Shown here in pieces: positions 1 to 13,037 of a stretch of DNA of 13,037 nucleotides. The first letter of the stretch is position 1, and each line of letters begins with the position of its first letter. Origin of the DNA: Myxococcales bacterium. Its GTDB lineage: Bacteria > Myxococcota > Bradymonadia > UBA7976 > UBA1532. The stretch spans positions 1 through 13,037 of the forward strand of contig JAGQJJ010000044.1 in NCBI GenBank assembly GCA_020430675.1, given 5' to 3'. Position numbers and translations under genes: made by a program. The notes below the pieces were generated by a model. The model had not been told where the DNA came from and did no database searches. It saw only the letters and a program-made list of their open reading frames with translations.

Positions 1-3000
1 ATTGTGGCAACGATGGCGAGCTCGTCGGCGGTGGCCCCGAGGTGGTTTACAGCTTCGTGTCCCCGGCCGATGGCCAGGTGTGCCTGAGCACCGCCGGGTC
101 GGCTTTTGACACCGTGCTCTACGTCCGCTCGGCGTGCATCGATCCGGTCACCGAGCTGGCCTGCAACGACGACGCCCGCGAGGATCTCACCTCGGGCCTG
201 ACGCTCGATGTGGCCGCGGGCGCGGAGTACTACATCTTTGTCGATGGCTATGATGAGGCCGAGTTCGGCGCGTTCTCGCTGAGCGTGGCGCCGGGCGCCT
301 GCCCCATCGAGTGTGCCGAGGATCTGGACTGCCGGGGTGGTCAAGTCTGCCTCGACGGCATCTGCACCGATCCGCCTCCCGAGTGCGCCAACGACGGCGA
401 TTGCCCGGATGGCGAGGTCTGCCAGGACGGCCGGTGCTTCGCTTGCTTCGTCGACGACGACTGCGGCCCGAACGCCGCTTGCGTCGACGGCGAGTGCGTG
501 CCGGCGCCGCCCGAGTGCTTCATGGACTTCGATTGCCTCGACGGTCAGATCTGCGATGTGGCGACCCAGCGGTGCGTCGATCCCGAGTGCGTGATCGACG
601 ATGACTGCGGCGGCGACATCTGCAGCAATGGCCGTTGCGTGCCGCCTCCGCCCGGCTGTGATGCGGCGCAGCCCATCGCCGTCGGCGACGTGGTGCAAGG
701 CGCGACCGCCGGTCCGGACCGGCTCCAGCAGGCCGACCCGCTGTGCACCGTCGGAGAAGGCGCCAGCGGCCCCGAGGCGGTTTTTGTGCTTCAGGTGCCG
801 GTCGACGGCGATGTCTGCGTCAGCTCGGCCGGCTCGGCGATCGACACCATCGTGTACGTGCGCGCCGGCGCCTGTGATGATGGCGCCGCCGAGGTGGGCT
901 GCAGCGACGACAACCCCGACCTGACCGGCGAGCCGCGCAGCTCGGCGCTGACCGTGGGCGCCACCGCCGGCACCGCCTACTACATCATCGTTGACGGCTT
1001 CGGCGGCGCCGCGGGTGACTTCACCCTGAGCGTGCAGCCCGGCCCCTGCGTCCCGCCGCCCGACTGCTTGCAGGACGGCGACTGCCTCGGTGGCTTCTGC
1101 GTGGACGGCTCGTGCGTGGAGTGCCGCAATGACGGCGACTGCGCGCCGGGTGACGTCTGCAACCCTGAAGGCATCTGCCTGCCGCCCATCGTGGACTGCG
1201 CGGCCGACGCCCTGCCCATCGCGGCGGGTGACACCGTGCAGGGCAGCACCGTTGATGCGCCGGGCGCCCAGGGTGGCTCCTGCGGCAACTCGCAGAACTC
1301 GCCCGACGTGGCGTACGCCTTTGCGCCCGGCGGCGATGGCACGTTCTGCGTGTCGACCCGCGGCTCGGGCTACGACACCGTGCTGCACATTCGCGGCGAC
1401 GTCTGCGGCGATCCGGCCGCCGAGGTGGCCTGCAATGATGACAACGGCGCCATCGCGGGCGGTCTGCAGTCGGCGATCGAGTTCGACGCGGCCGGGGGCA
1501 CGACGTATTACATCTTCGTCGACGGCTTCAACGGCGCTGCGGGTGACTACACCCTGAACGTCGCGGCCGGGCCTTGCGTGCCCCCGCCGGAATGCGCGGT
1601 CGACGAGGACTGTGGCTTGGGTGAGGTCTGCCAGGACGGCCAGTGCGTGGTGCCGCCCGACTGCATCGAAGACGCGGATTGCGCGCCGGGCGAGCTGTGC
1701 CTCGAGGGCGCCTGTGTGGTGGGTGACTGCCGCATCGACGCCGACTGCGCGCCGGGCCTGACCTGCGTGAACAACGCCTGTCGTGACATCGGTGGCGTCG
1801 GCACCTGCGATGACTTCAACGTCATCGACGCCGGTGACACCGTGCAGGGCACCACCGCCGGCGCGCCGTCGGTCCAGGGCGCGACCTGCGGCGGCAACGC
1901 GGCGAGCCCCGAGTCGGTGTTCGCCTTCGCGGGCGACGGCGAGTTCTGCGTCAGCCTGCGCGGCAGCGCCTACGACACCGTGCTGCACGTCCGCGGTGAT
2001 GCGTGTGACGATCCGGCCGCGGAGGTGGCTTGCAACGACGACAACGCGGCGATCGCAGGCGGTCTCCAGTCGGCGCTCACCCTGAACGCCGATCCGGCGG
2101 TGGTGTACTTCATCTTCGTCGACGGCTTCGGCGCGGACGAGTCGGGTGACTTCACCCTCTCGGTCACCGCCGGACCTTGCGTGCCGCCGCCCGAGTGTGT
2201 CGCGGACGGGGACTGCGCGCCCGGCGAGGTGTGCCTCGAAGGCCAGTGCGTGGTTCCGCCTGACTGCCTCGCTGATGCCGACTGCGCGCCGGGCGAGCTC
2301 TGCCTCGATGGCGCTTGCGTGGTGGGCGATTGCCGCGACGACGCGGACTGCGCGCCGGGCCTGACCTGCGTGAACAACAGCTGCCGCGATCTGGCCGGCG
2401 TCGGCACCTGCGATGACTTCAACGTCATCGACGTCGGCGACTCGGTCGATGGCACCACGGCCGGCGCCCCGTCGAACCACGGGGCGACCTGTGGCTCCAA
2501 CGCGGGCAGCCCGGAGTCGGTGTTTGCCTTCGCCGGTGACGGCGAGGTATGCGTCAGCACGCAGGGCAGCGCCTATGACACGGTGCTGCACATTCGGGCC
2601 GACAACTGCGCCGACCCGGCCGCCGAAGTGGCTTGCGCCGATGACAGCGCGGACCTGACCGGTGAACTGCGGACGTCGGCGATCACGCTGAACGCCGATC
2701 CGGCGGTGGTGTACTTCATTTTCGTCGACGGCTTTGGCGCCAACTCGTCGGGCGACTTCACCCTGACCGTGACCGACGGCGCCTGTCAGGCGGCGCCGGA
2801 GTGCGTGCAGGACGCGGACTGCTTCGCTGGCGAGGTCTGCCTCGACGGTCAGTGCGTGGTGCCGCCCGAGTGCGTGGACGACGCGGACTGCGCCGCGGGC
2901 GAGCTCTGCATCGGTGGTGGCTGCGTCGTTGGCAACTGCCGCGACGACGCCGACTGCCTGCCGGGCGAGCTCTGCATCGACAACGGTTGCTTGCAGCCGC

Positions 3001-4001
3001 CTGAGGCGGGCACCTGCGATGCGCCGGCGCCCTATCAGGTCGGCACGGTGGTCACTGGCAGCACCACGGGGGGCGTCAACCTCATCAGTGACGCCACTTG
3101 CGGCGGCGGTGGCGCCGGACCGGACTCGGTCTACGCCTTCACCGCGCGCGGCGATGGCCCCGTCTGCCTGTCGTTGGCCGGTTCGTCCTACGACACCGTC
3201 CTCTCGGTGCGGGTCGATCCGTGCGGGGACGCCGCGTCGGAAGCGATTTGCAACGACGACGCCGTCGGTCTTCAGTCGCGGCTCGAGTTGGCCGCGACCG
3301 CCGGCACCACCTACTACGTGGTCGTCGACGGCTTCGGTGGCGCCAACGGTGACTATCGGCTCAGCAGCTCGGCGGGCACCTGCGCGGCGGCGCCGCCTCC
3401 GCAGTGCGATGACAACACCGACTGCTTCGGCGACGGTGAAGTCTGCGTGGACGGTGCCTGCGTGCAGGCGCCGGACTGCCTGCAGGACGCGGACTGCGCC
3501 GATGGCGTCTGCGTCGCGGGGGCCTGCGTGGAGTGCCGCGCCGACGGCGACTGCGCGCCTGGCGATGTGTGCCGCGAAGGCGCCTGCGTACCGCCGCCGG
3601 TGCTGGCGGGCACCTGCGCTCAGCCGACGCCCATCCCCGGACCCGGTGTGTTCAACGGCTCGACGGACGGCGCTGAATCGCTCAACGGCGCGAGCTGTGC
3701 GGGCGGCGCCGGCAGCCCCGAGGCGGTGTTTGTGCTCAACGGGAACGGGCAGCCCTTCTGCCTGAGCCTGGAGGGCTCCGACTACGACACCGCGTTGTTC
3801 GTGCGCACCGCTTGCGGTGATCAGAACAGCGAGGTCATCTGCAACGATGACAACGGTGGCGGTGGTCTCTGGTCGCGGCTGACGCTCAACACCGCGGCCA
3901 ACACGCCCTACTTCGTCTTCGTCGACGGCTACTTCAGCCAGTTCGCCGGTGGCAACAGCGGCAACTACCTGCTGACCGTGGCCGCGGGCGCCTGCCCCTG
4001 A
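1..4001 (+). CDS. Giant secreted Cys-rich repeat protein (PPC-like domains plus Cys/Asp-rich modules), 5' truncated
   Basis: The reading frame is open to the left edge from base 3, and the first visible residues (CGNDGELVGGGPEVVYSF) match the interior of a repeat unit. The GTG at 42 is therefore not a start, and the gene begins outside the window. 1332 residues are visible. Seven beta-rich units of about 120-130 residues share a core like YDTVLxVR...C...E(V/L)xCNDD...L.AG..YYxxVDGF...G(D/N)(F/Y).LxV..G.C, resembling the bacterial pre-peptidase C-terminal (PPC) fold. The first unit is partial. Between them are 19 modules of the form (E/D)CxxDxDCxxGxxCxxGxC, grouped 5-2-3-3-3-3. The many paired Cys and acidic residues suggest a disulfide-bonded, possibly Ca-binding, extracellular or surface protein. 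It ends directly after the seventh unit (GNYLLTVAAGACP), with no MYXO-CTERM or other sorting tail. Similar architectures are known in myxobacterial secreted proteins. The ligand or partner cannot be read from the sequence; adhesion or a surface scaffold is only a guess. Confidence 0.88.
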   Translation, partial: CGNDGELVGGGPEVVYSFVSPADGQVCLSTAGSAFDTVLYVRSACIDPVTELACNDDAREDLTSGLTLDVAAGAEYYIFVDGYDEAEFGAFSLSVAPGACPIECAEDLDCRGGQVCLDGICTDPPPECANDGDCPDGEVCQDGRCFACFVDDDCGPNAACVDGECVPAPPECFMDFDCLDGQICDVATQRCVDPECVIDDDCGGDICSNGRCVPPPPGCDAAQPIAVGDVVQGATAGPDRLQQADPLCTVGEGASGPEAVFVLQVPVDGDVCVSSAGSAIDTIVYVRAGACDDGAAEVGCSDDNPDLTGEPRSSALTVGATAGTAYYIIVDGFGGAAGDFTLSVQPGPCVPPPDCLQDGDCLGGFCVDGSCVECRNDGDCAPGDVCNPEGICLPPIVDCAADALPIAAGDTVQGSTVDAPGAQGGSCGNSQNSPDVAYAFAPGGDGTFCVSTRGSGYDTVLHIRGDVCGDPAAEVACNDDNGAIAGGLQSAIEFDAAGGTTYYIFVDGFNGAAGDYTLNVAAGPCVPPPECAVDEDCGLGEVCQDGQCVVPPDCIEDADCAPGELCLEGACVVGDCRIDADCAPGLTCVNNACRDIGGVGTCDDFNVIDAGDTVQGTTAGAPSVQGATCGGNAASPESVFAFAGDGEFCVSLRGSAYDTVLHVRGDACDDPAAEVACNDDNAAIAGGLQSALTLNADPAVVYFIFVDGFGADESGDFTLSVTAGPCVPPPECVADGDCAPGEVCLEGQCVVPPDCLADADCAPGELCLDGACVVGDCRDDADCAPGLTCVNNSCRDLAGVGTCDDFNVIDVGDSVDGTTAGAPSNHGATCGSNAGSPESVFAFAGDGEVCVSTQGSAYDTVLHIRADNCADPAAEVACADDSADLTGELRTSAITLNADPAVVYFIFVDGFGANSSGDFTLTVTDGACQAAPECVQDADCFAGEVCLDGQCVVPPECVDDADCAAGELCIGGGCVVGNCRDDADCLPGELCIDNGCLQPPEAGTCDAPAPYQVGTVVTGSTTGGVNLISDATCGGGGAGPDSVYAFTARGDGPVCLSLAGSSYDTVLSVRVDPCGDAASEAICNDDAVGLQSRLELAATAGTTYYVVVDGFGGANGDYRLSSSAGTCAAAPPPQCDDNTDCFGDGEVCVDGACVQAPDCLQDADCADGVCVAGACVECRADGDCAPGDVCREGACVPPPVLAGTCAQPTPIPGPGVFNGSTDGAESLNGASCAGGAGSPEAVFVLNGNGQPFCLSLEGSDYDTALFVRTACGDQNSEVICNDDNGGGGLWSRLTLNTAANTPYFVFVDGYFSQFAGGNSGNYLLTVAAGACP
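1590..2795 (+). repeat. Two-copy in-gene tandem duplication, 603-base period
   Basis: Within the giant Cys-rich gene, the block of three Cys modules plus one PPC-like unit at about 1590-2192 is followed by a close copy at about 2193-2795. The two are in register at an offset of exactly 603 bases (201 codons). For example, the stretch encoding GVGTCDDFNVID begins near 1794 and again near 2397, and NADPAVVYFIFVDGFGA occurs in both. The other units in the gene are clearly more diverged, so this looks like the most recent unit duplication. The outer limits are approximate because the linker modules resemble each other throughout. Confidence 0.8.
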
Positions 4002-4124: not shown

Positions 4125-5807
4125 CTAGCCCTCGCCGAGCTGCATCTTCAGGTGGCTCGGGTCACGCGCCACCTGCAGCGCGACCTCGCGGCTGATCAGC
4201 CCCTGCCGCGTCAGGTTGGCCAGCGAGGTGTCGAACGGCAGCATGCCCTCGCGGCGGCCGCTCTGCATCACGGTGCTGAGCTGGTGGGTGCGACGCTCGC
4301 GAATCATGTTTGCGATCGCATAGTTGGCGCGCAAGATCTCGACCGCGGGCACCCGCCCCAGGCCGTCGACGGTGGGCAGCAGACGTTGGGTGACCAGCGC
4401 CCGCAGCACGTCGGCCAGCTGATGCCGAATCTGCGACTGCTGGTGCTCGGGGAAGACATCGATCATGCGGTCGATCGCCTGGCTGACGCTGCCGCTGTGC
4501 AGCGTTGAGAGCACCAGGTGCCCCGTCTCGGCGGCGGTGATCGTCGCGGCGATGGTGTCGAGGTCGCGCATCTCGCCCACCAGGATGATGTCGGGCGCCT
4601 CGCGCAGCGCAGCGCGCAGGCCGTCGGCGAAGCTCGCGACGTGCACCCCGATCTCGCGCTGGTGGATCAGGCTGAGCTTGTCACCGAAGAGATACTCGAC
4701 CGGATCCTCAAGCGTGATGATGTGGCTGCGCCGCGTTGTATTGACGTGCTCGATGAGCACCGAGAGCGTCGTCGACTTGCCCGAGCCGGTCGGCCCCGCC
4801 AGGAGCACCAGGCCGCTGGGGAAGTCGACCAGCTCGCTGAGCTGCTGCGGCAGGCGCAGCGCCTCGAAGTCGGGCACCTGATCCCAGATGGGCCGAAATG
4901 CGGCGGCGAGGCCGGTCATGGTCTTGAAGACGTTGACCCGAAAGCGATCCTGCCGCCCGCCTTCGCCAGCGACGTCGAGCGCCACGTCGAGGCTGCCGGT
5001 CTCTTCCAGGTGGGCCCGTCGGGCGTCGGTCAACGTGGCGCCGAGCGCGCCGAGGATGTCATCGGCGCTGAACGTCGCCCCCGCGATCGAGCGATACTGC
5101 GACGCCAGCCGGACGCGCGCTTCGCGGTCGGTCGAGACCACCAGGTCCGAGATGCGCTGGACCACCACCTGGCGCAGAATCTTGGTGATCGAGCGCTCAC
5201 AGCCGCGGAACAGGGTCAGGACCGGTCCGCCGGGTTCGCTCATCGAGCCCTGCGAGCGCCCGTCGGCGAGCACCTCGCCCGCGCTTGAAGGCGATGGTCC
5301 GCCGGCGGCTTCGGTCGCTGGTTTGTCGACCCGCGGGGGCTCGAGCAGCGGTCGAGCGCGCTCGATGCTGATGCTCGACGCGACCTGCGGATTGCTCGCG
5401 CGACTCGGGATGCCCGCCGGCAGCCCTGGCCGCGGCTCACCGGGCCGGCTCATGCGTCTGGGCGGTGCCGCCGCCGGCGCATCCATCGAGGCATCGGGCC
5501 CGTCGGCCGATCGGAAGGCGATGGCCAGGCCATCGGACAGCCGCCGCACGCGAAAGCGAATGCGGCCGATGCGACTGCCCGCGTATTCCCCGTCGACCAG
5601 ACCGCGGCCGGTCAACACCGCGAGCTGCTCCGAGTCGAGCAGCTGCTCGATCAGCTTCGCCAGCATGTCGCCTTCGATCGGCGTGGTCTCGGGGATGGCG
5701 CGCGTCTCGCCCTTGTGCACGAGGAACGGCGCTTGACCTGGGCGCAGCTGCAGCGAGTCTGCACCCTTGGTCACCATCTGCTGGAGCATGTCGTTGAGGC
5801 TGGGCAC
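4125..5807 (-). CDS. PilT-family (type IV pilus retraction-type) ATPase with a duplicated N-terminal domain
   Basis: 560 residues from GTG 5807; PilT proteins are usually about 350-420. A PilT-type N domain (about 1-102, beginning VPSLNDMLQQMVTKGADSLQL) is followed by a Pro/Ala/Ser-rich linker (about 103-198). A second N domain (about 205-307: SITKILRQVV...ISDLVVS...DRFRVNVF) leads into a complete catalytic domain. That domain has Walker A GPTGSGKST (338-346), the Asp box ITLEDPVEY (364-372), Walker B PDIILVGEMRD (405-415) and the His box HLVLSTLHS (430-438). All catalytic residues are present, so it should be an active hexameric cytoplasmic motor powering pilus retraction or a related machine. 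The start is GTG 5807 because GGAGG lies 5 bases upstream and the N domain begins there. An in-frame ATG at 5864 would add 19 residues but has no ribosome binding site. It is last of three minus-strand genes, 159 bases after the YARHG gene. No pilB or other pilus gene is in view. Confidence 0.9.
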   Translation of the reverse strand: MPSLNDMLQQMVTKGADSLQLRPGQAPFLVHKGETRAIPETTPIEGDMLAKLIEQLLDSEQLAVLTGRGLVDGEYAGSRIGRIRFRVRRLSDGLAIAFRSADGPDASMDAPAAAPPRRMSRPGEPRPGLPAGIPSRASNPQVASSISIERARPLLEPPRVDKPATEAAGGPSPSSAGEVLADGRSQGSMSEPGGPVLTLFRGCERSITKILRQVVVQRISDLVVSTDREARVRLASQYRSIAGATFSADDILGALGATLTDARRAHLEETGSLDVALDVAGEGGRQDRFRVNVFKTMTGLAAAFRPIWDQVPDFEALRLPQQLSELVDFPSGLVLLAGPTGSGKSTTLSVLIEHVNTTRRSHIITLEDPVEYLFGDKLSLIHQREIGVHVASFADGLRAALREAPDIILVGEMRDLDTIAATITAAETGHLVLSTLHSGSVSQAIDRMIDVFPEHQQSQIRHQLADVLRALVTQRLLPTVDGLGRVPAVEILRANYAIANMIRERRTHQLSTVMQSGRREGMLPFDTSLANLTRQGLISREVALQVARDPSHLKMQLGEG

Positions 5808-5835
5808 GGCTCCCTCCGGTCTCGCTGCTGTCGGC

Positions 5836-5841
5836 AGTGTA
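5836..5841 (-). promoter_or_regulatory. Possible -10 element upstream of the PilT-like gene
   Basis: On the minus strand, TACACT (reading 5841 to 5836) lies 28 bases before the GTG start at 5807 and just upstream of the GGAGG at 5817-5813. No convincing -35 hexamer is present at the usual distance, so this is weak. If real, it would give a short leader with a good ribosome binding site, and it would rule out the longer ATG start at 5864. The remaining 5842-5966 holds only the small hairpin described separately. Confidence 0.25.
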
Positions 5842-5941
5842 GACCGAAGTGGCCGGGAGATCATCGAACCGTGGCCTGCATGTCCGCCGTGTCGCGAAGG
5901 CGCCCCGCGCGTGGTCCGGAACCACCGCGCGGCGCCGTCAG

Positions 5942-5966: not shown

Positions 5967-6797
5967 TCAAGCGGCAAACATCCAGTGGTCGTCGCCGTAC
6001 TCTTCCTTCTGATGCTGCTCGTCGGTCAGCGGGCCGCCCACCTCGTCTTCGACGGAGCGGATCAGCTTCACGTTGCGCCAGTCGAGCGGCGTCAGCTTCG
6101 CGGTCGTGTACTTGGGGTCGATCTGGTACCAGTCGGTCGCCGCGAAGTACTCGCGCAGCAGGTCGGACTTGAACGCATAACCGCGGCGCGCAAACACCAT
6201 GTTGCGCAAGATGCGCAGGTCGCGCCGCGACATGTTCTCGAGCTGCGCTTTGGTCAGCTGCTTGTCCAACAGGCGCGGATCTTCCAGCGGCGAACGGTCG
6301 GTCTCCGGCGCTGCCTGATCCCCCAGCCACCGCCCCAGCCGCTGCGAGAGCAGGTGCATCTCGATCTGCATCTCTGGGGTCACGTCGCCCTCGGCCATCT
6401 TGGCCTGGTACGCCTCGGCGCGCTTCTTGAGGACCTCGGGGGTCAATGCCGCCTCGTAGGTGGCGATCAGCTTGGCGTTCTGCCAGTCGAGCTTGCTGAT
6501 CTTGCTCGCGTCGGCCTTGCCCTGCGCCTTGTACCAGGGCTGGGCGCGGAAGTAGGTGTCGAGCCACTTCCGCCGGAAGGTATTGCCGGCACGGGCGAAG
6601 ATCACGTTGCGCATGAGCGAAAGCTCGCGCAGCGTGCGCCCTTCGAGGTCGGCCGGGGTCAGCGCGCGATCGAAGTAGAACGCTGGCGAATACGTCAGCC
6701 CGACGACGGGCGGCGTGGTCGGGGTCGGGGGCGGTTGGGCCCAGGCGGGCATGGCGACAAAGAGCGTGGCCACGCCGACTTTCCTCCAGGATCTCAA
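5967..6797 (-). CDS. Secreted protein with two YARHG domains
   Basis: 276 residues from TTG 6797. The start was chosen because GGGAGG (6808-6803) sits 5 bases upstream and the product begins with a clean signal peptide: basic MRSWRK, hydrophobic VGVATLFVAM, then PAWA with cleavage expected before Q21. An in-frame upstream extension to 7019 would add an Arg-rich stretch overlapping the preceding gene and is unlikely. Two copies of the YARHG motif follow: residues about 51-115 (NVIFARAGNTF...YFRAQPWYK...LDWQNAKLI) and about 186-250 (NMVFARRGYAF...YFAATDWYQ...LDWRNVKLI). A charged helical spacer lies between them. YARHG is an extracellular or periplasmic domain of unknown biochemical role. There is no lipobox Cys, so it is probably soluble and exported. 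It lies 116 bases after the membrane-protein gene and 159 bases before the PilT-like gene, on the same strand. Confidence 0.85.
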   Translation of the reverse strand: MRSWRKVGVATLFVAMPAWAQPPPTPTTPPVVGLTYSPAFYFDRALTPADLEGRTLRELSLMRNVIFARAGNTFRRKWLDTYFRAQPWYKAQGKADASKISKLDWQNAKLIATYEAALTPEVLKKRAEAYQAKMAEGDVTPEMQIEMHLLSQRLGRWLGDQAAPETDRSPLEDPRLLDKQLTKAQLENMSRRDLRILRNMVFARRGYAFKSDLLREYFAATDWYQIDPKYTTAKLTPLDWRNVKLIRSVEDEVGGPLTDEQHQKEEYGDDHWMFAA

Positions 6798-6913
6798 GGT
6801 GTCCTCCCGCGCGCGCTCCGGTGCGCGTCGCGCTTCGAGCATCGCATGGGCGGGGGCATCGGCGGAAGCGGCGCCCGCTGGGGTGAGGGAATGCGCGGCT
6901 CGGCGCGCAGCGG

Positions 6914-8056
6914 TCAGTCCGGGCAGCGCGCTCCGTCGAGCAGGCGGGCGGCGGCGTCGAGATCGGCGTCGGCGGGGCCGAAATAGAAGCCCACGAAGCT
7001 CGCCCCCAGCTTGGGGCACCCGAAGGCCGTCAACAGCGCGCGCTGGCTGCCCGGCTCGTCGGCCACGGTGCCGGTGAAGGCGAAATACTGGCGCGGCTGA
7101 CCCCCGACCTTGCGCAGCCCGGGCGGGGCGATCGGATGCAGGTTCTGCAGCATCAGCCCCATCAGGGCGTTGCGGGCCTGCTCGACCTCGGCGAGCTTGC
7201 GCGGCAGCTCCAGATCGGGCTCAGCGGGCGCAAAGCCGACCGCCTCGTCGCCGCGCGCATACATCTTCATCTCCGGATCCTCGACCTCAACAAAGCCCGG
7301 TGGGGCCTCAAAATGCGCCGAGGGCACCACCAGGCCGGGCGGAAGCGCCGCGCAGCGCGCCGAAGCGAGCACCGCGCCATGCAGCCGCAGCGCGACCGCT
7401 TCCGTGGCCTGCATCGACGTGCCGACCAGCACCGTCAGGCCGTCTTCGCCGCATTGAAAGGTGGTCATGGCCGAGGCGAAGGGTCGCGCGTCATCGCTGA
7501 TGACCACCGTCTCGGCCGGCCGGTCGGCGACGCGCTCGGGCGGTCCGTCATGCGCCTTCAGGTTGGGGAGCAGGCCGCTGAGCATCTGCGCGATCTCATC
7601 GCGGCTCAGGGTCGGGCCCAGCTTCCATTCAATGTGCACCTGCGCCCGCTCATCGAAGCGGCTGCGCACGATCTGGCCGCGCGGGCCGAGGCGGTGCTGG
7701 TTGACCTCGGGCCAGCGCGGCACCGAGATGACCAGCCCGGGCACTTCGACCGACTCGAGCTCGGGCGCGTCGGGGTCGCCCACAAAGTGCATGAAGCCGG
7801 CCACGATCAGCGCGGAGAGCCCCGCCGCGAGGGGCAGCGCCGCCAGCCATCGCACCGGGCCGTCGGCCCGCCGCATGAGCTGACCGCTGGCGATGATGAG
7901 GCCGATCGCGCCCCCGGTCAGCAACGTGTTCAACCCGGCCGAGAGCCCGTCGATCGGCAGATAGACATACCGGCAGATCAACAGGGTGAGCCCGGCGCAG
8001 AGCACCACCGCGCCTGCGGTGCGGGCCGACGACGGCGCAGGGGTGGGCGATGACAT
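6914..8056 (-). CDS. Unrecognised membrane protein: three N-terminal helices and a duplicated Cys-paired domain
   Basis: 380 residues from ATG 8056, chosen because GGAGG (8068-8064) is 7 bases upstream; a longer in-frame start at 8140 has no such support. Hydrophobic segments at about 13-35, 41-60 and 70-92 look like three transmembrane helices. The remaining 285 residues are soluble, with an odd helix count placing them outside the cytoplasm if the N-terminus is inside. This part appears to contain two related halves. Each ends with a Cys-to-Cys segment of similar pattern: FQC202...ASARC235 and FGC347...DGARC378, 33 and 31 residues apart, each preceded by a beta-rich stretch. That suggests an internal duplication with one disulfide per half. 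I do not recognise the family and assign no function. It is first in a minus-strand series with the YARHG and PilT-like genes and is divergent from the sixA-like gene. Confidence 0.8.
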   Translation of the reverse strand: MSSPTPAPSSARTAGAVVLCAGLTLLICRYVYLPIDGLSAGLNTLLTGGAIGLIIASGQLMRRADGPVRWLAALPLAAGLSALIVAGFMHFVGDPDAPELESVEVPGLVISVPRWPEVNQHRLGPRGQIVRSRFDERAQVHIEWKLGPTLSRDEIAQMLSGLLPNLKAHDGPPERVADRPAETVVISDDARPFASAMTTFQCGEDGLTVLVGTSMQATEAVALRLHGAVLASARCAALPPGLVVPSAHFEAPPGFVEVEDPEMKMYARGDEAVGFAPAEPDLELPRKLAEVEQARNALMGLMLQNLHPIAPPGLRKVGGQPRQYFAFTGTVADEPGSQRALLTAFGCPKLGASFVGFYFGPADADLDAAARLLDGARCPD

Positions 8057-8809: not shown

Positions 8810-10333
8810 ATGACCGCCCCCCTCACCGCGGTGCGCACCGTCTTCGGGCACCGGTGCACGATTGCCGCTCGGCGTGGGCGGGCGGCCTGGGTCGTGGCGA
8901 CCGTGCTGATCGCCGGCCTGCCCGCCCGGGCGCAGGCGCCCACCGTGCTCTCGCTCGACGAGCTGTTGCGTCTCGCCGAAGAGACCAGCCCGGTGATGGA
9001 CATCGCCCGGGCCCAGCTCTCCGATTACGACGCGCTCTTCGACCGCGCCTACTATGCCTGGACGCCTTCGCTCAAGGTGCGCTCGGCCCTGGCGCCGCTG
9101 CCCGAGCGACGCGAGCTGAAGGAATGCGTGCAGGTCGACCCCGATGACCTCCCGGCCATGGGCGCCCGCGGGGGGCGTGACCTCGACCCCTTGACGCTCG
9201 CGGTCAAACCCTGCCCCGGACAGAACCTGCAGACCGACGAGCGCATCACCGCTGACACCGAGATCGGCCTCTTGACCCGCACCGAGGTCGAGATGACGTT
9301 TCCGATCTATACCTTCGGCAAGATCTCGCACGCGCAGCGCGCCGCCCGCGCCGGCATTGATGTGGGTCGCGCTGGCCTTGAGGTCGCTCGCGGCGAGCTG
9401 AGCTACCTGGTCAAGAAGGCCTATTACGGCGCGCAGCTCGCCGCCAGTGCGCTCGACATTCTCGAAGATGGGCGCAAGCGGCTGGCCAAGGCCAAACGCG
9501 ACATCGAGAAGGAGCTCGACAAAGAGAGCGGCCGCTTCACGAGCAACGACCTGCGCAAGATGCTGGTCGACGAGGCCGACATCGAGGCGGCCTATCTTGA
9601 GACCGACGCGCTGCGCCGGGTGGCCTGGGAGGGCCTGCGCATCGCCGCCGCGGTGGGCCCCGACGCGCCGTTGGCCCTCGACACGATGGAGCTGGAGCCG
9701 GTGCACGTCGAGCCGCGTTCGGTCGACGCCTACGTCGAACTCGCCGCCGAAGCGCGGCCCGAGATGCGCATGGCGCGCGCGGCGGTGCGGGCGCGGCAGA
9801 GCCAGGTCGACATGGCCTACGCCGATCGCTGGCCCAACATCGCGCTGGTCGGCTTCTTCCGCTACGGCCTGGGCACCAGCGCCGACAACCCGATCGACCC
9901 GTTCGCCAACGACGGCTACAACTTCTTGAGCTGGGGCGGTTTTCTGGCCGCCGAGTGGCGCATTGACAACGACACCTGGTCGAACAAGGTGCTGCGCGCC
10001 GAAGCGGCGCTGGTCAAGCAGCGGGCCGAGGCCGACGCGCTCACTCAGAAGCTTCGGCTCGATGTGGTGCAGCAGTTCGGCGAGGTCGATCGGCGCGCCC
10101 GCGAGCTGGATGTGCGGCGCGTCGCGACCAAAGCGGCCAAAGGCTGGCTCGTTTCCAACTCGCTCAACTTCGGGCTTGGCCTGGTCACCACCGACGAACT
10201 GCTCAAGAGCCTGGTGGCCTATAGCCAGGCGCGACTGACCTATTTCCGCACGATCTACGAACACAACCTGGCCGTCGCGAAGCTCTCGCAGATGGTCGGC
10301 ACCGAGCTGGCGGTTCCGCCGCCACGTGAATAG
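8810..10333 (+). CDS. TolC-family outer-membrane efflux/secretion channel protein
   Basis: 507 residues from ATG 8810. The long N-terminus contains a basic stretch (RRGRAAW) and a hydrophobic segment ending LPARAQA, read as a signal peptide with cleavage near residue 43. The mature part begins with the typical LSLDELLRLAEETSPVMDIARAQL helix. The family pattern repeats twice: strand-rich FPIYTFGKISHAQRAARAGI (164-183) after the first half, and WRIDNDTWSNKVLRAEAAL in the second. Between them are long coiled-coil-like helices (about 184-270 and 400-470). Such proteins form trimeric barrel-tunnels carrying substrates of RND, ABC or MFS exporters across the outer membrane. An insertion of about 50 residues after TPSLKVRSAL carries Cys106 and Cys135, possibly a disulfide in the first external loop. 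No inner-membrane or adaptor partner is in the window. There is no Shine-Dalgarno site; a GTG at 8831 is an alternative start. The mlaC-like gene follows 56 bases downstream. Confidence 0.88.
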   Translation: MTAPLTAVRTVFGHRCTIAARRGRAAWVVATVLIAGLPARAQAPTVLSLDELLRLAEETSPVMDIARAQLSDYDALFDRAYYAWTPSLKVRSALAPLPERRELKECVQVDPDDLPAMGARGGRDLDPLTLAVKPCPGQNLQTDERITADTEIGLLTRTEVEMTFPIYTFGKISHAQRAARAGIDVGRAGLEVARGELSYLVKKAYYGAQLAASALDILEDGRKRLAKAKRDIEKELDKESGRFTSNDLRKMLVDEADIEAAYLETDALRRVAWEGLRIAAAVGPDAPLALDTMELEPVHVEPRSVDAYVELAAEARPEMRMARAAVRARQSQVDMAYADRWPNIALVGFFRYGLGTSADNPIDPFANDGYNFLSWGGFLAAEWRIDNDTWSNKVLRAEAALVKQRAEADALTQKLRLDVVQQFGEVDRRARELDVRRVATKAAKGWLVSNSLNFGLGLVTTDELLKSLVAYSQARLTYFRTIYEHNLAVAKLSQMVGTELAVPPPRE

Positions 10334-10389
10334 GCGGGGCGGTCGTTCGTACTGCCCGCCGAATCGGCTTTGACCTCAAGGTGGTCCCC

Positions 10390-11088
10390 ATGACGCGCAC
10401 TCTCACAAGCTTTGTCGCCCTTTTTGCCCTCCTCGTCTCCGCCTCCGCGGCGCTCGCCGGCCCACCCACGCGCTTCCTCGAATCCCAGGTCACCGCGGTC
10501 CGCACCCTGCTCCAGAAGCCGGCTGCCGCGGGCACGCCCGAGTCCGACGCCATCGATGATCAGCTCCGGGCCATCATCAACCCGGTCATGGAGTTCGATC
10601 GCCTCAGCGAGAGCGCCCTGCGCAAGCACTGGCCGACGCTCACGCCCGCGCAGCGCACCGAGTTCATCACGCTCTTCCGCGCGCTCGTCTTCCACAGCTA
10701 CCTCAAGAAGATCCGCTCGGCGAACGAGGACTACACCGTCGAGTATGAGGATGAGGAGCTGAAGAGCCGCGAGGCGGCGACGGTGACCGCCATCGCCAAG
10801 ACCAAAAAGGCGGAGATCGAGCTGGTCTTCCACCTGATCGCGCGCGGTCCGTCGGTGTGGGTCGCCGAAGACATCGTCATCGACGAGGTCTCGCTGGTCG
10901 AGAACTACCGCGAGCAGTTCAACAAGATCATCGCCAAGGATGGTTTCGCCGCGCTGACCAAGAAGATGCGCGACAAGCTGGTCGACCTGGGCGGCAAGGT
11001 GCCCGAGATTCCCGCGACCCCGGCTGCCGACAAGCCCGCCGCGCCCGCGCCGACGGCCGACAAGCCCGCTGCGCCGGACACGAAGTAA
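10390..11088 (+). CDS. mlaC: MlaC/Ttg2C-type periplasmic phospholipid-binding protein
   Basis: 232 residues from ATG 10390, chosen over an in-frame GTG at 10381 because AAGGTGG (10378-10384) ends 5 bases before the ATG and overlaps the GTG. The signal peptide MTRTLTSFVALFALLVSASAALA is cleaved before G24. The mature protein shows the MlaC pattern: helical N-terminal part, INPVMEFDRLSESALRKHW, LTPAQRTEFITLFRALVFHSYLKKI, then a strand-rich part with SVWVAEDIVIDEVSLVENYREQF and an inhibitor-like helix IIAKDGFAALTKKM. MlaC ferries phospholipids between the inner-membrane MlaFEDB transporter and the outer membrane. None of those partner genes is nearby; instead the gene directly follows a tolC-like gene and probably shares its transcript. 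The C-terminal tail has ADKPAAP twice, a flexible Pro/Ala extension beyond the usual domain. The orthology to mlaC, as opposed to a paralogue, is not certain. Confidence 0.85.
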   Translation: MTRTLTSFVALFALLVSASAALAGPPTRFLESQVTAVRTLLQKPAAAGTPESDAIDDQLRAIINPVMEFDRLSESALRKHWPTLTPAQRTEFITLFRALVFHSYLKKIRSANEDYTVEYEDEELKSREAATVTAIAKTKKAEIELVFHLIARGPSVWVAEDIVIDEVSLVENYREQFNKIIAKDGFAALTKKMRDKLVDLGGKVPEIPATPAADKPAAPAPTADKPAAPDTK

Positions 11089-11151: not shown

Positions 11152-11901
11152 TCACATCAGCAGCAGCGACGCCAGGGCGCCCACGATGGCGGCGCCCAGC
11201 ACCAGCAAGCCATAGATGACAAACTGGCGCGCCTGGCGGCCCGACTTGGCCTTGCCGCGCGGGTCGACCAGGATGCACTCGATATTGCCGAACTGGACGC
11301 GGTCGCCGTGGAAGACCCGCGACGAGCCGACCAGCCGGCGGCCGTGCACCAGCGTGCCATTGCTGGAGTTGAGGTCGGTCAGCACGTAGCTGCCGTCGTC
11401 CTGCCGCTTGAGCCGCGCGTGATGGCGCGAGACCGACACGTCGGGCAGCGTGACGTCGTTTTCGTCGGTGCGGCCGACGCAGGTGATCGGCTCGAACATG
11501 AGCTGTTCGCGGCCGGCCTGGGCCCCGCTGACCACCACCAGCTTTCCGTGCGCCTGTTCGGGGTGCACGATCGCGGTGCTGATGCCCTCTTGCGGCGCGC
11601 CTTTGCTGGTGGCGCGCTCCAAGAAGACCCGGTACTCGCCGATGCGAATCTGGCTGGTCTCGTCGATCGGGGTGTCAGTGCGCACCCGCTGTTCGTTGAC
11701 GACGACCCCATTGCTGCTGCCCTCATCCGAGACGAAGGCGGTATTGCCCTGCAGGTAGATGGAGGCGTGGCGGCGTGAGACCGCGCCGCTGGGCAGGACG
11801 ATGTCGTTGTCCGGTGTACGGCCGATGCTCAGCGCACCGCCCGACAGGACATGCTCGCTGACCAACGCGCCCCGCTCGTCTTCGACGACGACGATGTACA
11901 C
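11152..11901 (-). CDS. Tandem FHA-domain protein with a C-terminal membrane anchor
   Basis: 249 residues from GTG 11901, with GAGGA about 9 bases upstream. Two FHA domains are clear. FHA1 (about 1-97) has GRTPDNDIVL from residue 27, SRRH 42-45 and SSNG 62-65. FHA2 (about 119-213) has GRTDENDVTL from 143, SRHH 158-161 and NSSNG 178-182. The Gly-Arg, Ser-Arg-x-His and Ser-Asn residues that define phosphothreonine-binding FHA domains are kept in both. After a basic stretch (RGKAKSGRQARQ), residues 226-247 are hydrophobic and end the protein, so it is probably tail-anchored with both FHA domains in the cytoplasm. It lies 30 bases downstream of the CpaF-like gene, very likely in one operon. The expected role is to read threonine phosphorylation by a Ser/Thr kinase and dock partners at the membrane. 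The kinase and its targets are not visible here. Confidence 0.9.
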   Translation of the reverse strand: MYIVVVEDERGALVSEHVLSGGALSIGRTPDNDIVLPSGAVSRRHASIYLQGNTAFVSDEGSSNGVVVNEQRVRTDTPIDETSQIRIGEYRVFLERATSKGAPQEGISTAIVHPEQAHGKLVVVSGAQAGREQLMFEPITCVGRTDENDVTLPDVSVSRHHARLKRQDDGSYVLTDLNSSNGTLVHGRRLVGSSRVFHGDRVQFGNIECILVDPRGKAKSGRQARQFVIYGLLVLGAAIVGALASLLLM

Positions 11902-11931: not shown

Positions 11932-13037
11932 TTATTGGAAGAGGTTGGCGTCGATGGAGAAACCCAGGCTCTGTGCGTTGAGCACCCAGCGCGGTACGAA
12001 GCCGCTCTGCGCGCGGAACGCCTCAAGGCCGTTGAAGACCTCCTGGATCTCGCCATCGATGTCCATGATCTGCGTCACGCGCCGGCGTCCGTCGGCGTAG
12101 TGCAGCAGCTGCACCAATACATCAGCCGTGTCGCGGATGGCCGCGTCAACCTGCGCCGCGTCGATCGACTGCGCGAGGCTGGCGTGGCGCATCAACCGGA
12201 TGATGGCGTCATCAGGCGACTCGGCGTCAACCCCGATGATGCCGCCGTTGACCGCGCCGCCCAGCGCGCTCAGCGCGTGGTAGGCCTCGGGGCCGCGGGC
12301 ATCGGCGACCACGAGCCGGTCAGGGCGCATCTTGATGGCCTGCTGAACCAACGTGACGTTGTCGGCCCCGGGCGCACCCGAGAGCACGACGCGGGCGCCG
12401 GCGCCGCGCGAGAGCCGCCCGCCGCCTTCGACCGCGACGACCCGCAGATGCGGTGCCCCAGCGTCGAGCAGCGCGCCGATGAACTCGAACCGCGCGTCGA
12501 CCTCGTTGCACGAGACGATGACGTTGCGGCCGAGCTCGATCGCGTGGCGCAGGAAGGCCGCCATATTGGCGCTGAGCACGTCGCCCGCGACCATCTCGTC
12601 GAGAGACTGCGCGCCCTGGCCCGGTCGGTCGAGCGTCAGGTAGGGGCCACCCACCGCCGGCTGGGCGACATGCGCCCGGGTGCCGTCGGCCAGCCAGGCC
12701 TCCCCGAACGGGGTGTGCCCGTCGAGGATCTGCCCCGCGCCGGCCAGCAGGCGCAGGCCCGCGGTGACGGCAAAGACCGGATGCGAGAAGGCGCCCGCAT
12801 CTTCGACCCGGCCGTCGCGCAGGACGCGAACGGCCGTGCCGTCGACGGTGATGCGCCCGACCGACTCGTCGTCAAGCAGCGCGGTCAGCGGGCCGATGGC
12901 CAGCGCCTCGGCGGTGACCAGCGTCGCCGCGGTGGCCGCGTCGTAGCCATCGGGCAGCGCGCCGGCGTCGATCGCACCCAGCGCGGTCTGCTCGACCCGC
13001 TTCCAGGTCATGTCGTCGATGGCCTGGCCCGGTCGCC
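11932..13037 (-). CDS. CpaF/TadA-like secretion-ATPase homologue with lost nucleotide-binding motifs (probable pseudo-ATPase), partial
   Basis: The frame is open to the right edge (RPGQAIDD precedes the ATG at 13011), and no good ribosome binding site supports that ATG, so the 5' end probably lies outside. Numbering from 13011 gives 359 residues. The CpaF order is clear: LAIGPLTALLDDESVGRITVDG, DGHTPFGEAWLADGTRAHVAQP, SLDEMVAGDVLSANMAAFLRHAI, KMRPDRLVVADARG and ADGRRRVTQIMDI. Catalytic motifs are replaced in place without gaps. The Walker A that reads IVSGGTGSGKTT in the family is IVSCNEVDARFE (165-176), with Lys to Arg174 and every P-loop Gly gone. The Walker B Glu is Asp237 (VADARG for VGECRG). 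The His box TTIHANSP is IGVDAESP, with His to Asp262. It probably cannot hydrolyse ATP. It may be a structural or regulatory relative of a Tad/Flp-pilus motor. The tandem FHA gene follows after 30 bases. The reading frame is intact, so it is not a decaying pseudogene. Confidence 0.82.
   Translation of the reverse strand, partial: RPGQAIDDMTWKRVEQTALGAIDAGALPDGYDAATAATLVTAEALAIGPLTALLDDESVGRITVDGTAVRVLRDGRVEDAGAFSHPVFAVTAGLRLLAGAGQILDGHTPFGEAWLADGTRAHVAQPAVGGPYLTLDRPGQGAQSLDEMVAGDVLSANMAAFLRHAIELGRNVIVSCNEVDARFEFIGALLDAGAPHLRVVAVEGGGRLSRGAGARVVLSGAPGADNVTLVQQAIKMRPDRLVVADARGPEAYHALSALGGAVNGGIIGVDAESPDDAIIRLMRHASLAQSIDAAQVDAAIRDTADVLVQLLHYADGRRRVTQIMDIDGEIQEVFNGLEAFRAQSGFVPRWVLNAQSLGFSIDANLFQ

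What the first reader, a model, noticed from the sequence alone, without database searches (positions are those of the whole stretch)
11932..13037. CpaF-like pseudo-ATPase with P-loop, Walker B Glu and His box all replaced
Seen: the protein aligns along its visible length with CpaF/TadA secretion ATPases, yet IVSGGTGSGKTT is IVSCNEVDARFE, VGECRG is VADARG and TTIHANSP is IGVDAESP. These are gap-free substitutions in an intact frame. Known: these motifs bind and hydrolyse ATP in the family. Inference: selection has kept the fold while removing catalysis, pointing to a regulatory, scaffolding or differently-liganded descendant that may not have been described.
Basis: partly seen in the sequence, partly recalled or inferred. 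Interest (0 to 1): 0.75.

Follow-up and report, generated by a model that had tools for sequence, protein, structure and literature searches.

The report
Conserved dead relative of pilus motor
In some Myxococcota bacteria, a protein built like the motor that assembles Tad pili has lost the parts needed to burn ATP and keeps instead its own fixed set of residues, together with an almost unchanging phosphate-reading domain, so it probably serves as a scaffold or switch and not as a motor.

The parts
11932..13035 (-). CpaF-like pseudo-ATPase domain (3' 367 codons of a gene whose 5' end, expected to hold a Pro-rich linker and an FHA domain, lies beyond the window)
   Evidence: open frame; PDB sequence match to CpaF; AlphaFold and fold search; full-length relatives
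12484..12513 (-). position of the P-loop / Walker A, now SCNEVDARFE (residues 175-184); N177 and R182 in 36 of 36 rows, D180 in 35 of 36 (E in one)
   Evidence: the model has strand 171-176 and a helix from 179, with a two-residue turn between
12412..12429 (-). position of the Asp box, EGGGRL (residues 203-208); the Mg-coordinating E312 of CpaF is R207
12292..12309 (-). position of Walker B, VADARG (residues 243-248); catalytic E357 is D245
12214..12237 (-). position of the His box, IGVDAESP (residues 267-274); H382 is D270
12676..12696 (-). second-domain arginines, W114 to R120: R217 lost (W), R223 kept (R120)
11152..11901 (-). partner gene: two FHA domains and a C-terminal hydrophobic stretch (read by eye as a membrane anchor, not computed), 30 bases downstream on the same strand
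   Evidence: Pfam FHA, two stretches, 1.1e-37; same neighbour in 10 of 10 clade loci
10381..11088 (+). MlaC-like periplasmic lipid-transfer protein, convergent, conserved neighbour
   Evidence: PF05494 3.9e-33; present with the OEP gene at 7 of 9 clade loci examined with flanks
8810..10333 (+). TolC/OEP-type outer-membrane protein, conserved neighbour
   Evidence: PF02321 4.8e-28

Best explanation
The gene is the 3' part of an FHA - linker - CpaF-fold protein whose ATPase site is dead. It descends from an FHA-bearing Tad/Kil-type motor ATPase that left its pilus cluster together with an FHA-containing partner gene (the origin is inferred). SHOWN by computation: the fold is kept; Walker A, Asp box, Walker B Glu, His box and R217 are replaced, while R223, and in most rows R359, remain; an invariant or nearly invariant substitute set (N177, D180, R182, R207, D245) sits at the old site; the partner gene is fixed; the FHA is under far stronger constraint than the ATPase-like part. 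INFERRED: the protein still makes a CpaF-like ring that shows up to six FHA domains. Opposed charges at the old site (R182 and R207 with D180 and D245) hold the ring without nucleotide. The ring gathers Thr-phosphorylated proteins at the inner membrane, where the two-FHA protein with its hydrophobic tail anchors it. It is thus a phospho-dependent scaffold and not a motor.
For: Fold. Active site: 36 of 36 rows with R for Walker-A K, R for Asp-box E, D for Walker-B E and N for a P-loop G; 41 of 41 comparison rows keep K, E, E and H. Models: a 6-residue loop before K166 in the P-loop-bearing relative L046, but a 2-residue turn and a helix starting 3 residues before R182 here. FHA 93.5% mean identity (minimum 88.5%) against 45.4% (minimum 33.9%) for the last 340 residues of the same 12 proteins, 66 pairs, some of them close kin. 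Partner gene in 10 of 10 loci. Asp-box Glu absent from all 134 rows of the sister set (17 + 10 loci, 107 database rows), and E312 and R347 both absent from 107 of 107 P-loop-bearing ones. More than one P-loop loss: AU p 0.030 and 0.0047. No RcpC, no Tad-type secretin N-domain and no P-loop CpaF found in G001 or G002. dN/dS 0.23 (G001-G002) and 0.25 (G039-G064). Two motif-complete homologues with a similar FHA (L122, L123) lie between a Tad-type secretin gene and another FHA gene.
Against: Oligomer, nucleotide state, phosphopeptide binding and membrane anchoring are untested. K-to-R with an acidic residue kept at the Walker-B position does not exclude weak nucleotide binding. Invariant charged residues could bind another ligand instead of locking the site. 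Eight of ten clade genomes also hold a P-loop CpaF, so a role beside a real Tad motor is possible there. MAG completeness is not told, and one search scored 79 of 132 and 79 of 120 first-look candidates in G001 and G002 (searches scored all), so absence of a Tad machine there is provisional. Window pairwise dN/dS is only about 0.4-0.6, at large distance and with 90% G+C at third positions.
Confidence: 0.5

Rival explanations
1. Rebuilt site: the fold is a ligand sensor in which the N-x-x-D-x-R motif plus R207 and D245 bind a different small molecule, and ligand binding changes the ring and its FHA arms.
For: Five positions of the old active site carry new residues that are invariant or nearly so, which drift or mere loss would not give; the last 340 residues are only 45% identical on average in 12 members.
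Against: No pocket or ligand was computed; the motif can as well be structural, and the model shortens the loop where phosphates would sit.
Confidence: 0.2
2. Regulatory subunit of a Tad/Kil pilus: the dead protein forms mixed rings with, or competes with, the canonical CpaF of the same genome.
For: Eight of ten clade genomes have a P-loop CpaF and seven have RcpC; the ancestor looks like a Kil/Tad-type motor.
Against: In G001 and G002, the nearest relatives of the window, I found no canonical CpaF, RcpC or Tad-type secretin N-domain, yet they keep the clade member; in the seven genomes with Tad markers these lie on other contigs; the FHA module was found once in each of 7 of 8 genomes searched and not in G002, so no second copy sits on a canonical motor there.
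Confidence: 0.15
3. Weak or unusual NTPase: R182 and D245 still support slow binding or turnover, as a much slowed motor.
For: R223 is kept in 34 of 35 rows with a letter there, R359 in 27 of 36, an acid at the D215 position in 25 of 35, and the Walker-B position stays acidic in 36 of 36.
Against: The P-loop glycines at G282, G284 and G286, the Mg-binding Thr, the Asp-box Glu (charge reversed), the His box and R217 are gone. In C. crescentus CpaF, K287A abolishes ATPase activity in vitro (PMC12019362, passage), and E357A gives no plaques of a pilus-dependent phage (PMC11300603, passage).
Confidence: 0.08
4. Decaying gene or assembly error.
For: The window copy is cut by the contig end.
Against: The same residues in 36 of 36 rows from several databases; intact frames in the genome loci examined; G001-G002 dN/dS 0.23; synteny kept.
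Confidence: 0.02

Closest known systems
CpaF/TadA, class III (FHA - disordered linker - CpaF), as classified in PMC12019362 (passages read)
   Same: Domain order in full-length clade members, fold, ungapped motif positions
   Different: Catalytic set replaced; Tad markers absent or on other contigs; FHA extremely conserved; fixed two-FHA partner. That paper found class III mostly in betaproteobacteria
KilF of the Myxococcus xanthus Kil (Tad-like) predation system, PMC8460266 (passages read)
   Same: FHA fused to a CpaF-type ATPase; several FHA proteins in the system
   Different: KilF is reported as the ATPase of a Tad-like apparatus with secretin and platform; the window gene has no such neighbour on the side that is visible, and no Tad marker was found in the two nearest genomes. 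M. xanthus KilF itself was not compared by sequence here
Sister set, Bradymonadales-type (names seen among the database rows: Lujinxingia, Persicimonas, Bradymonadaceae)
   Same: FHA-linker-CpaF fold; where loci were checked, the two-FHA neighbour (16 of 17 P-loop-bearing and 9 of 10 P-loop-less loci) and often MlaC and OEP genes in the same arrangement
   Different: Often keeps GxxxxGK[ST], Walker-B Glu and His box; lacks Asp-box Glu, and R347 in all P-loop-bearing rows; P-loop lost in some lineages only
VirB11/TrbB and FlaI ATPases
   Different: Other systems; recalled as active ATPases

Membership tests
CpaF/TadA secretion ATPase | CpaF fold (three-helix bundle, NTD, RecA-like CTD) | tested here: met
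CpaF/TadA secretion ATPase | Walker A GxxGxGK[ST] | tested here: not met
   SCNEVDARFE; R at the Lys position in 36 of 36 clade rows
CpaF/TadA secretion ATPase | Asp-box Glu (E312) | tested here: not met
   R207; R in 36 of 36
CpaF/TadA secretion ATPase | Walker-B Glu (E357) | tested here: not met
   D245; D in 36 of 36
CpaF/TadA secretion ATPase | His box (H382) | tested here: not met
   D270; no His in 36 of 36
CpaF/TadA secretion ATPase | arginine fingers R217, R223, R347 | tested here: inconclusive
   R217 is W114 (no R in the 35 rows with a letter), R223 is kept as R120, R347 is K235 (K in 29 of 36, R in 1)
CpaF/TadA secretion ATPase | curated model cut-offs (Pfam T2SSE, NCBIfam TIGR03819) | tested here: not met
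   window 13.8 of 24.9 and 99.2 of 373.15 bits; the full-length relative L049 does pass Pfam T2SSE with 42.1 bits. TIGR03819's cut-off is missed by every match in 13 of 13 genomes, canonical CpaFs included, so that cut-off says little
CpaF/TadA secretion ATPase | located in a Tad pilus gene cluster | tested here: not met
   window neighbours are two-FHA protein, MlaC, OEP; no RcpC or PF13629 in G001 or G002, and in the 7 clade genomes with both, these lie on contigs other than the pseudo-ATPase. Genes upstream of the window are unseen
CpaF class III architecture | N-terminal FHA and disordered linker | tested here: inconclusive
   lies outside the window; present in 12 full-length relatives
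CpaF/TadA secretion ATPase | hexamer, ATP hydrolysis | not testable with these tools
   needs protein
KilF | encoded beside secretin or platform of a Kil/Tad system | tested here: not met
   no secretin or platform domain among the 9 window proteins scanned; secretin N-domain hits lie on other contigs. Flanking genes of L049-L054 were not scanned with Pfam

The most novel reading that the evidence does not exclude
A lineage of pilus-motor pseudo-ATPases spread over the Myxococcota has left pilus assembly and become phosphothreonine-reading inner-membrane hubs. In the window's clade the ATP site was rebuilt into a new invariant N-x-x-D-x-R / R207 / D245 site that binds a ligand other than ATP and gates the hub.
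Probability: 0.2. Interest if true: 0.8.

Novelty: new variant of a known kind. Interest (0 to 1): 0.62.

Why it matters
Motor ATPases of type IV filaments are treated as engines by definition. A conserved, syntenic lineage in which the engine is dead while its FHA arm is nearly frozen suggests that the ring can be kept for other work. It also gives a graded series (motif-complete FHA-CpaF; P-loop kept but Asp box and Arg finger lost; P-loop lost; site rebuilt) for studying how a pseudo-ATPase evolves. Source annotations call several clade members 'pilus assembly protein CpaF' or 'Flp pilus assembly complex ATPase component TadA', so pilus predictions that rest on such hits in Myxococcota are unsafe.

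Tried and rejected
Pseudogene, frameshift or assembly error: rejected (same residues in 36 of 36 rows; near-pair dN/dS 0.23 and 0.25). Mixed ring with a canonical CpaF as the general explanation: not favoured, as none was found in G001 and G002. One single loss of the P-loop: disfavoured, though the p for the P-loop-less sister rows alone is only 0.030, and starred branches alone force 2 changes of that label. Orthology of the clade with the sister set: one clade is not rejected (p 0.555, lnL 1.69 higher than the free tree), but that does not prove it; the free tree put subgroup B (4 rows) and the long-branched P0026 in the same set (94/98), so orthology rests on synteny as much as on the tree. 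A simple order 'finger first, then P-loop' is not borne out: 6 of 10 P-loop-less loci still have Arg at the R347 position. A partner function through MlaC/OEP was considered, but the linkage is missing at 2 of 9 clade loci, so I made no mechanism of it.

Rows dropped or unlike: of the 28 clade-like rows I left out two fragments (P0123, P0124), uninspected. Tree: 88 of 104 rows, 16 left out, mostly near copies (P0004 for its odd C-terminal end); P0013 and P0018 (partial) were not among the 104, and P0121/P0122 were fetched later. P0004 counts at the motifs. L084 was dropped uninspected, and further divergent T2SSE-like genes listed (G039:C11, G064:C273, G105:C39, G074:C127) were not fetched. 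The 41 comparison rows were picked by me from the hits. The 107 database rows of the sister set are P0196-P0302, placed by similarity and not checked for synteny. Rows of loci and of protein clusters overlap in part (L023 and P0024 have identical tails; L024 and P0022 are near copies). In some searches only the five best first-look candidates of each genome were scored, so counts of genomes are lower bounds. One search printed nothing because of my own pattern and was followed. The FHA cut-outs for L077 and L076 did not hit an FHA and were not used. Paper searches with nothing on point: no papers; 541 papers, 15 listed; 1 paper, already known; 148 papers, 12 listed; 9; 6. Recalled and from no call: the general idea of pseudo-ATPases. 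That FHA domains bind phosphothreonine is also stated in PMC12019362 (passage). One of them, G025, has a contig of 917808 bases, the same length as that of the Lujinxingia vulgaris row P0235, so it is probably that species.

Full report
What is there. The minus-strand frame from 13035 to 11932 is open for 367 residues. The window is a complete 13037-base contig that ends inside this gene. Six further clade contigs also end in the 5' part of the gene (G001:C62, G002:C39, G074:C232, G039:C94, G064:C225 before the domain, G162:C57 inside it), so 7 of 11 clade loci, the window included, are cut; four are not (G105, G152, G265, G223). The cause is probably ordinary: the first 110-120 bases of L001, L002 and L024, which code for the Pro/Ala-rich linker, are 87-91% G+C. 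In G001, G039 and G064 the FHA module that belongs upstream was found on another contig, in G064 at positions 142-423 of that contig. The ATG at 13011 is therefore not a reliable start.

The observation. phmmer against solved structures gives CpaF of the Tad pilus (8rkd, 8rjf, 9e24) at E about 1e-18, with no gap inside a motif. Mapping C. crescentus CpaF numbers (functions from passages of PMC11300603 and PMC12019362) onto the window gives K287 to R182, T288 to F183, E312 to R207, E357 to D245, R359 to R247, H382 to D270, R217 to W114, R223 to R120 and R347 to K235.

A conserved clade, not a lone wreck. The protein search found 24 rows of 39-100% identity, followed by a drop from 234 to 117 bits. 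The profile search added P0121 and P0122 and two fragments that I left out. Of 377 genomes of the phylum of G001, G001 and G002 included, 10 hold a member above 370 bits, and the next matches are at 233 bits or less (only five candidates per genome were scored, so 10 is a lower bound). Over 36 rows (26 proteins, 10 loci, partly overlapping) N177, R182, R207 and D245 are 36 of 36, and D180 is 35 of 36. None of these five residues occurs at its position in any of the 41 comparison rows. In a tree of 88 rows built without the motif columns the clade is one branch, 100/100, with 26 rows. dN/dS between near pairs is 0.23 and 0.25. It is higher (0.4-0.6) at larger distances, where the simple method and 90% G+C at third positions make it unreliable.

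The locus. In 10 of 10 clade loci and in the window the next gene on the same strand is a two-FHA protein of about 250 residues; the window copy has a hydrophobic C-terminal end. An MlaC-like and a TolC/OEP-type gene follow in convergent orientation in the window, G001, G002, G152, G265, G223 and G162, 7 of the 9 clade loci for which I had flanks; G105 and G064 lack them, and G074 and G039 were not examined with long flanks. The same arrangement occurs in a sister set: FHA-CpaF-like gene plus two-FHA gene plus MlaC and OEP in L057-L060 and L062 (5 of 5 of this set in the first batch), and MlaC plus OEP in L131, L134 and L135 (3 of 7 of a second batch, several on short contigs; the two-FHA gene in 6 of those 7). 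Three further loci of the first batch (L055, L056, L061) lack these neighbours in what was fetched and belong to another subgroup. Names seen among database rows like the sister set are Lujinxingia, Persicimonas and Bradymonadaceae.

How catalysis was lost. In the sister set 17 of 17 loci that I grouped as P-loop-bearing and 90 of 107 database rows match GK[ST]. In all 107 of these, the Asp-box Glu and the R347 finger are both absent. The other 17 of the 107 database rows, and 10 loci (overlapping in part), do not match GK[ST]. The Asp-box Glu is absent from every row of the set, but Arg at the R347 position is still there in 6 of the 10 P-loop-less loci and 10 of the 107 database rows, so the branches lost different parts. 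Holding the P-loop-less sister rows as one clade is disfavoured (AU p 0.030), and holding them together with the window clade is rejected (p 0.0047). Holding the window clade with the whole sister set is not rejected (p 0.555). The simplest history, inferred, is that the Asp-box Glu went first and the finger and the P-loop went later on several branches, and that the window clade then fixed its own replacement set. Motif-complete homologues with a similar FHA (L119/L122 and L121/L123) lie between a secretin gene with PF13629 and another FHA gene, which points to a Tad/Kil-type origin of the pair.

What selection protects. In 12 full-length clade members the FHA module is 93.5% identical on average (minimum 88.5%, 66 pairs), while the last 340 residues are 45.4% identical (minimum 33.9%); some of the 12 are close kin. 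A search with that module found one copy in each of 7 of 8 clade genomes and none in G002 (8 of the 10 genomes were given). The FHA, and by implication its partner, is thus the most constrained part.

Machine or no machine. In G001 and G002, whose members are 63% identical to the window protein, I found no RcpC, no PF13629 secretin N-domain and no P-loop CpaF; the other T2SSE matches I read by eye as PilB-, GspE- and PilT-like. G265 has no RcpC or PF13629 either but has a P-loop CpaF. The other 7 of 10 clade genomes have all three, on contigs other than that of the clade member. Genome completeness was not told, and one search scored only part of the candidates in G001 and G002, so these absences are provisional.

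Mechanism, with status. Shown: fold, dead site by sequence, invariant substitutes, partner gene, FHA constraint. Inferred: a ring with FHA arms, no nucleotide, charges paired across the old site, binding of phosphothreonine proteins, anchoring by the two-FHA protein. I put the scaffold reading at 0.5, a new ligand at 0.2, and a subunit of a Tad motor at 0.15. That the site is not a working ATPase I hold at about 0.9.

Literature. The FHA-linker-CpaF architecture is known as class III (PMC12019362, passages), and KilF of Myxococcus has an FHA (PMC8460266, passages; PMC12075869, passages, does not mention FHA). I found no description of a CpaF-type pseudo-ATPase in the searches; those cover open-licence papers only, and of the long hit lists I saw only the first 15 and 12.

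Noticed in passing
G001 and G002, loci L015 and L016: A second ATPase of this superfamily looks altered: a PilT-like protein with what looks by eye like a cyclic-nucleotide-binding N-terminus and GPRGSGRST (L015) or GPRGAGRST (L016) in the Walker A motif, Lys to Arg.
   Followed up: no
window 13037 end; L001, L002, L022, L024, L025, L027: Contigs of 7 of 11 clade loci end within the 5' part of this gene; the linker is 87-91% G+C in the three cut contigs measured.
   Followed up: partly
window 4125-5864 (-): PilT/PilU-type ATPase with intact GPTGSGKST; NCBIfam pilT_fam matches it in two stretches, so its N-terminal domain may be duplicated.
   Followed up: no
window 3-4001 (+): Large repetitive protein, 5' open, with 11 DUF7107 stretches and 4 Dickkopf-like Cys-rich stretches.
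   Followed up: no
L029, L030, L035, L038 (G333, G304, G369, G286): Subgroup B: another FHA-CpaF-like group, with nearly the same FHA module in the three where it was seen (L029, L030, L035); Walker A reads GK-A, GK-N, GK-T or GK-G, Walker-B Glu is Asp in 3 of 4, and no His box; no two-FHA neighbour seen, though L029/L056 has only about 0.3 kb downstream.
   Followed up: partly
window 5967-7019 (-): Protein with two YARHG stretches, E 8.6e-35.
   Followed up: no
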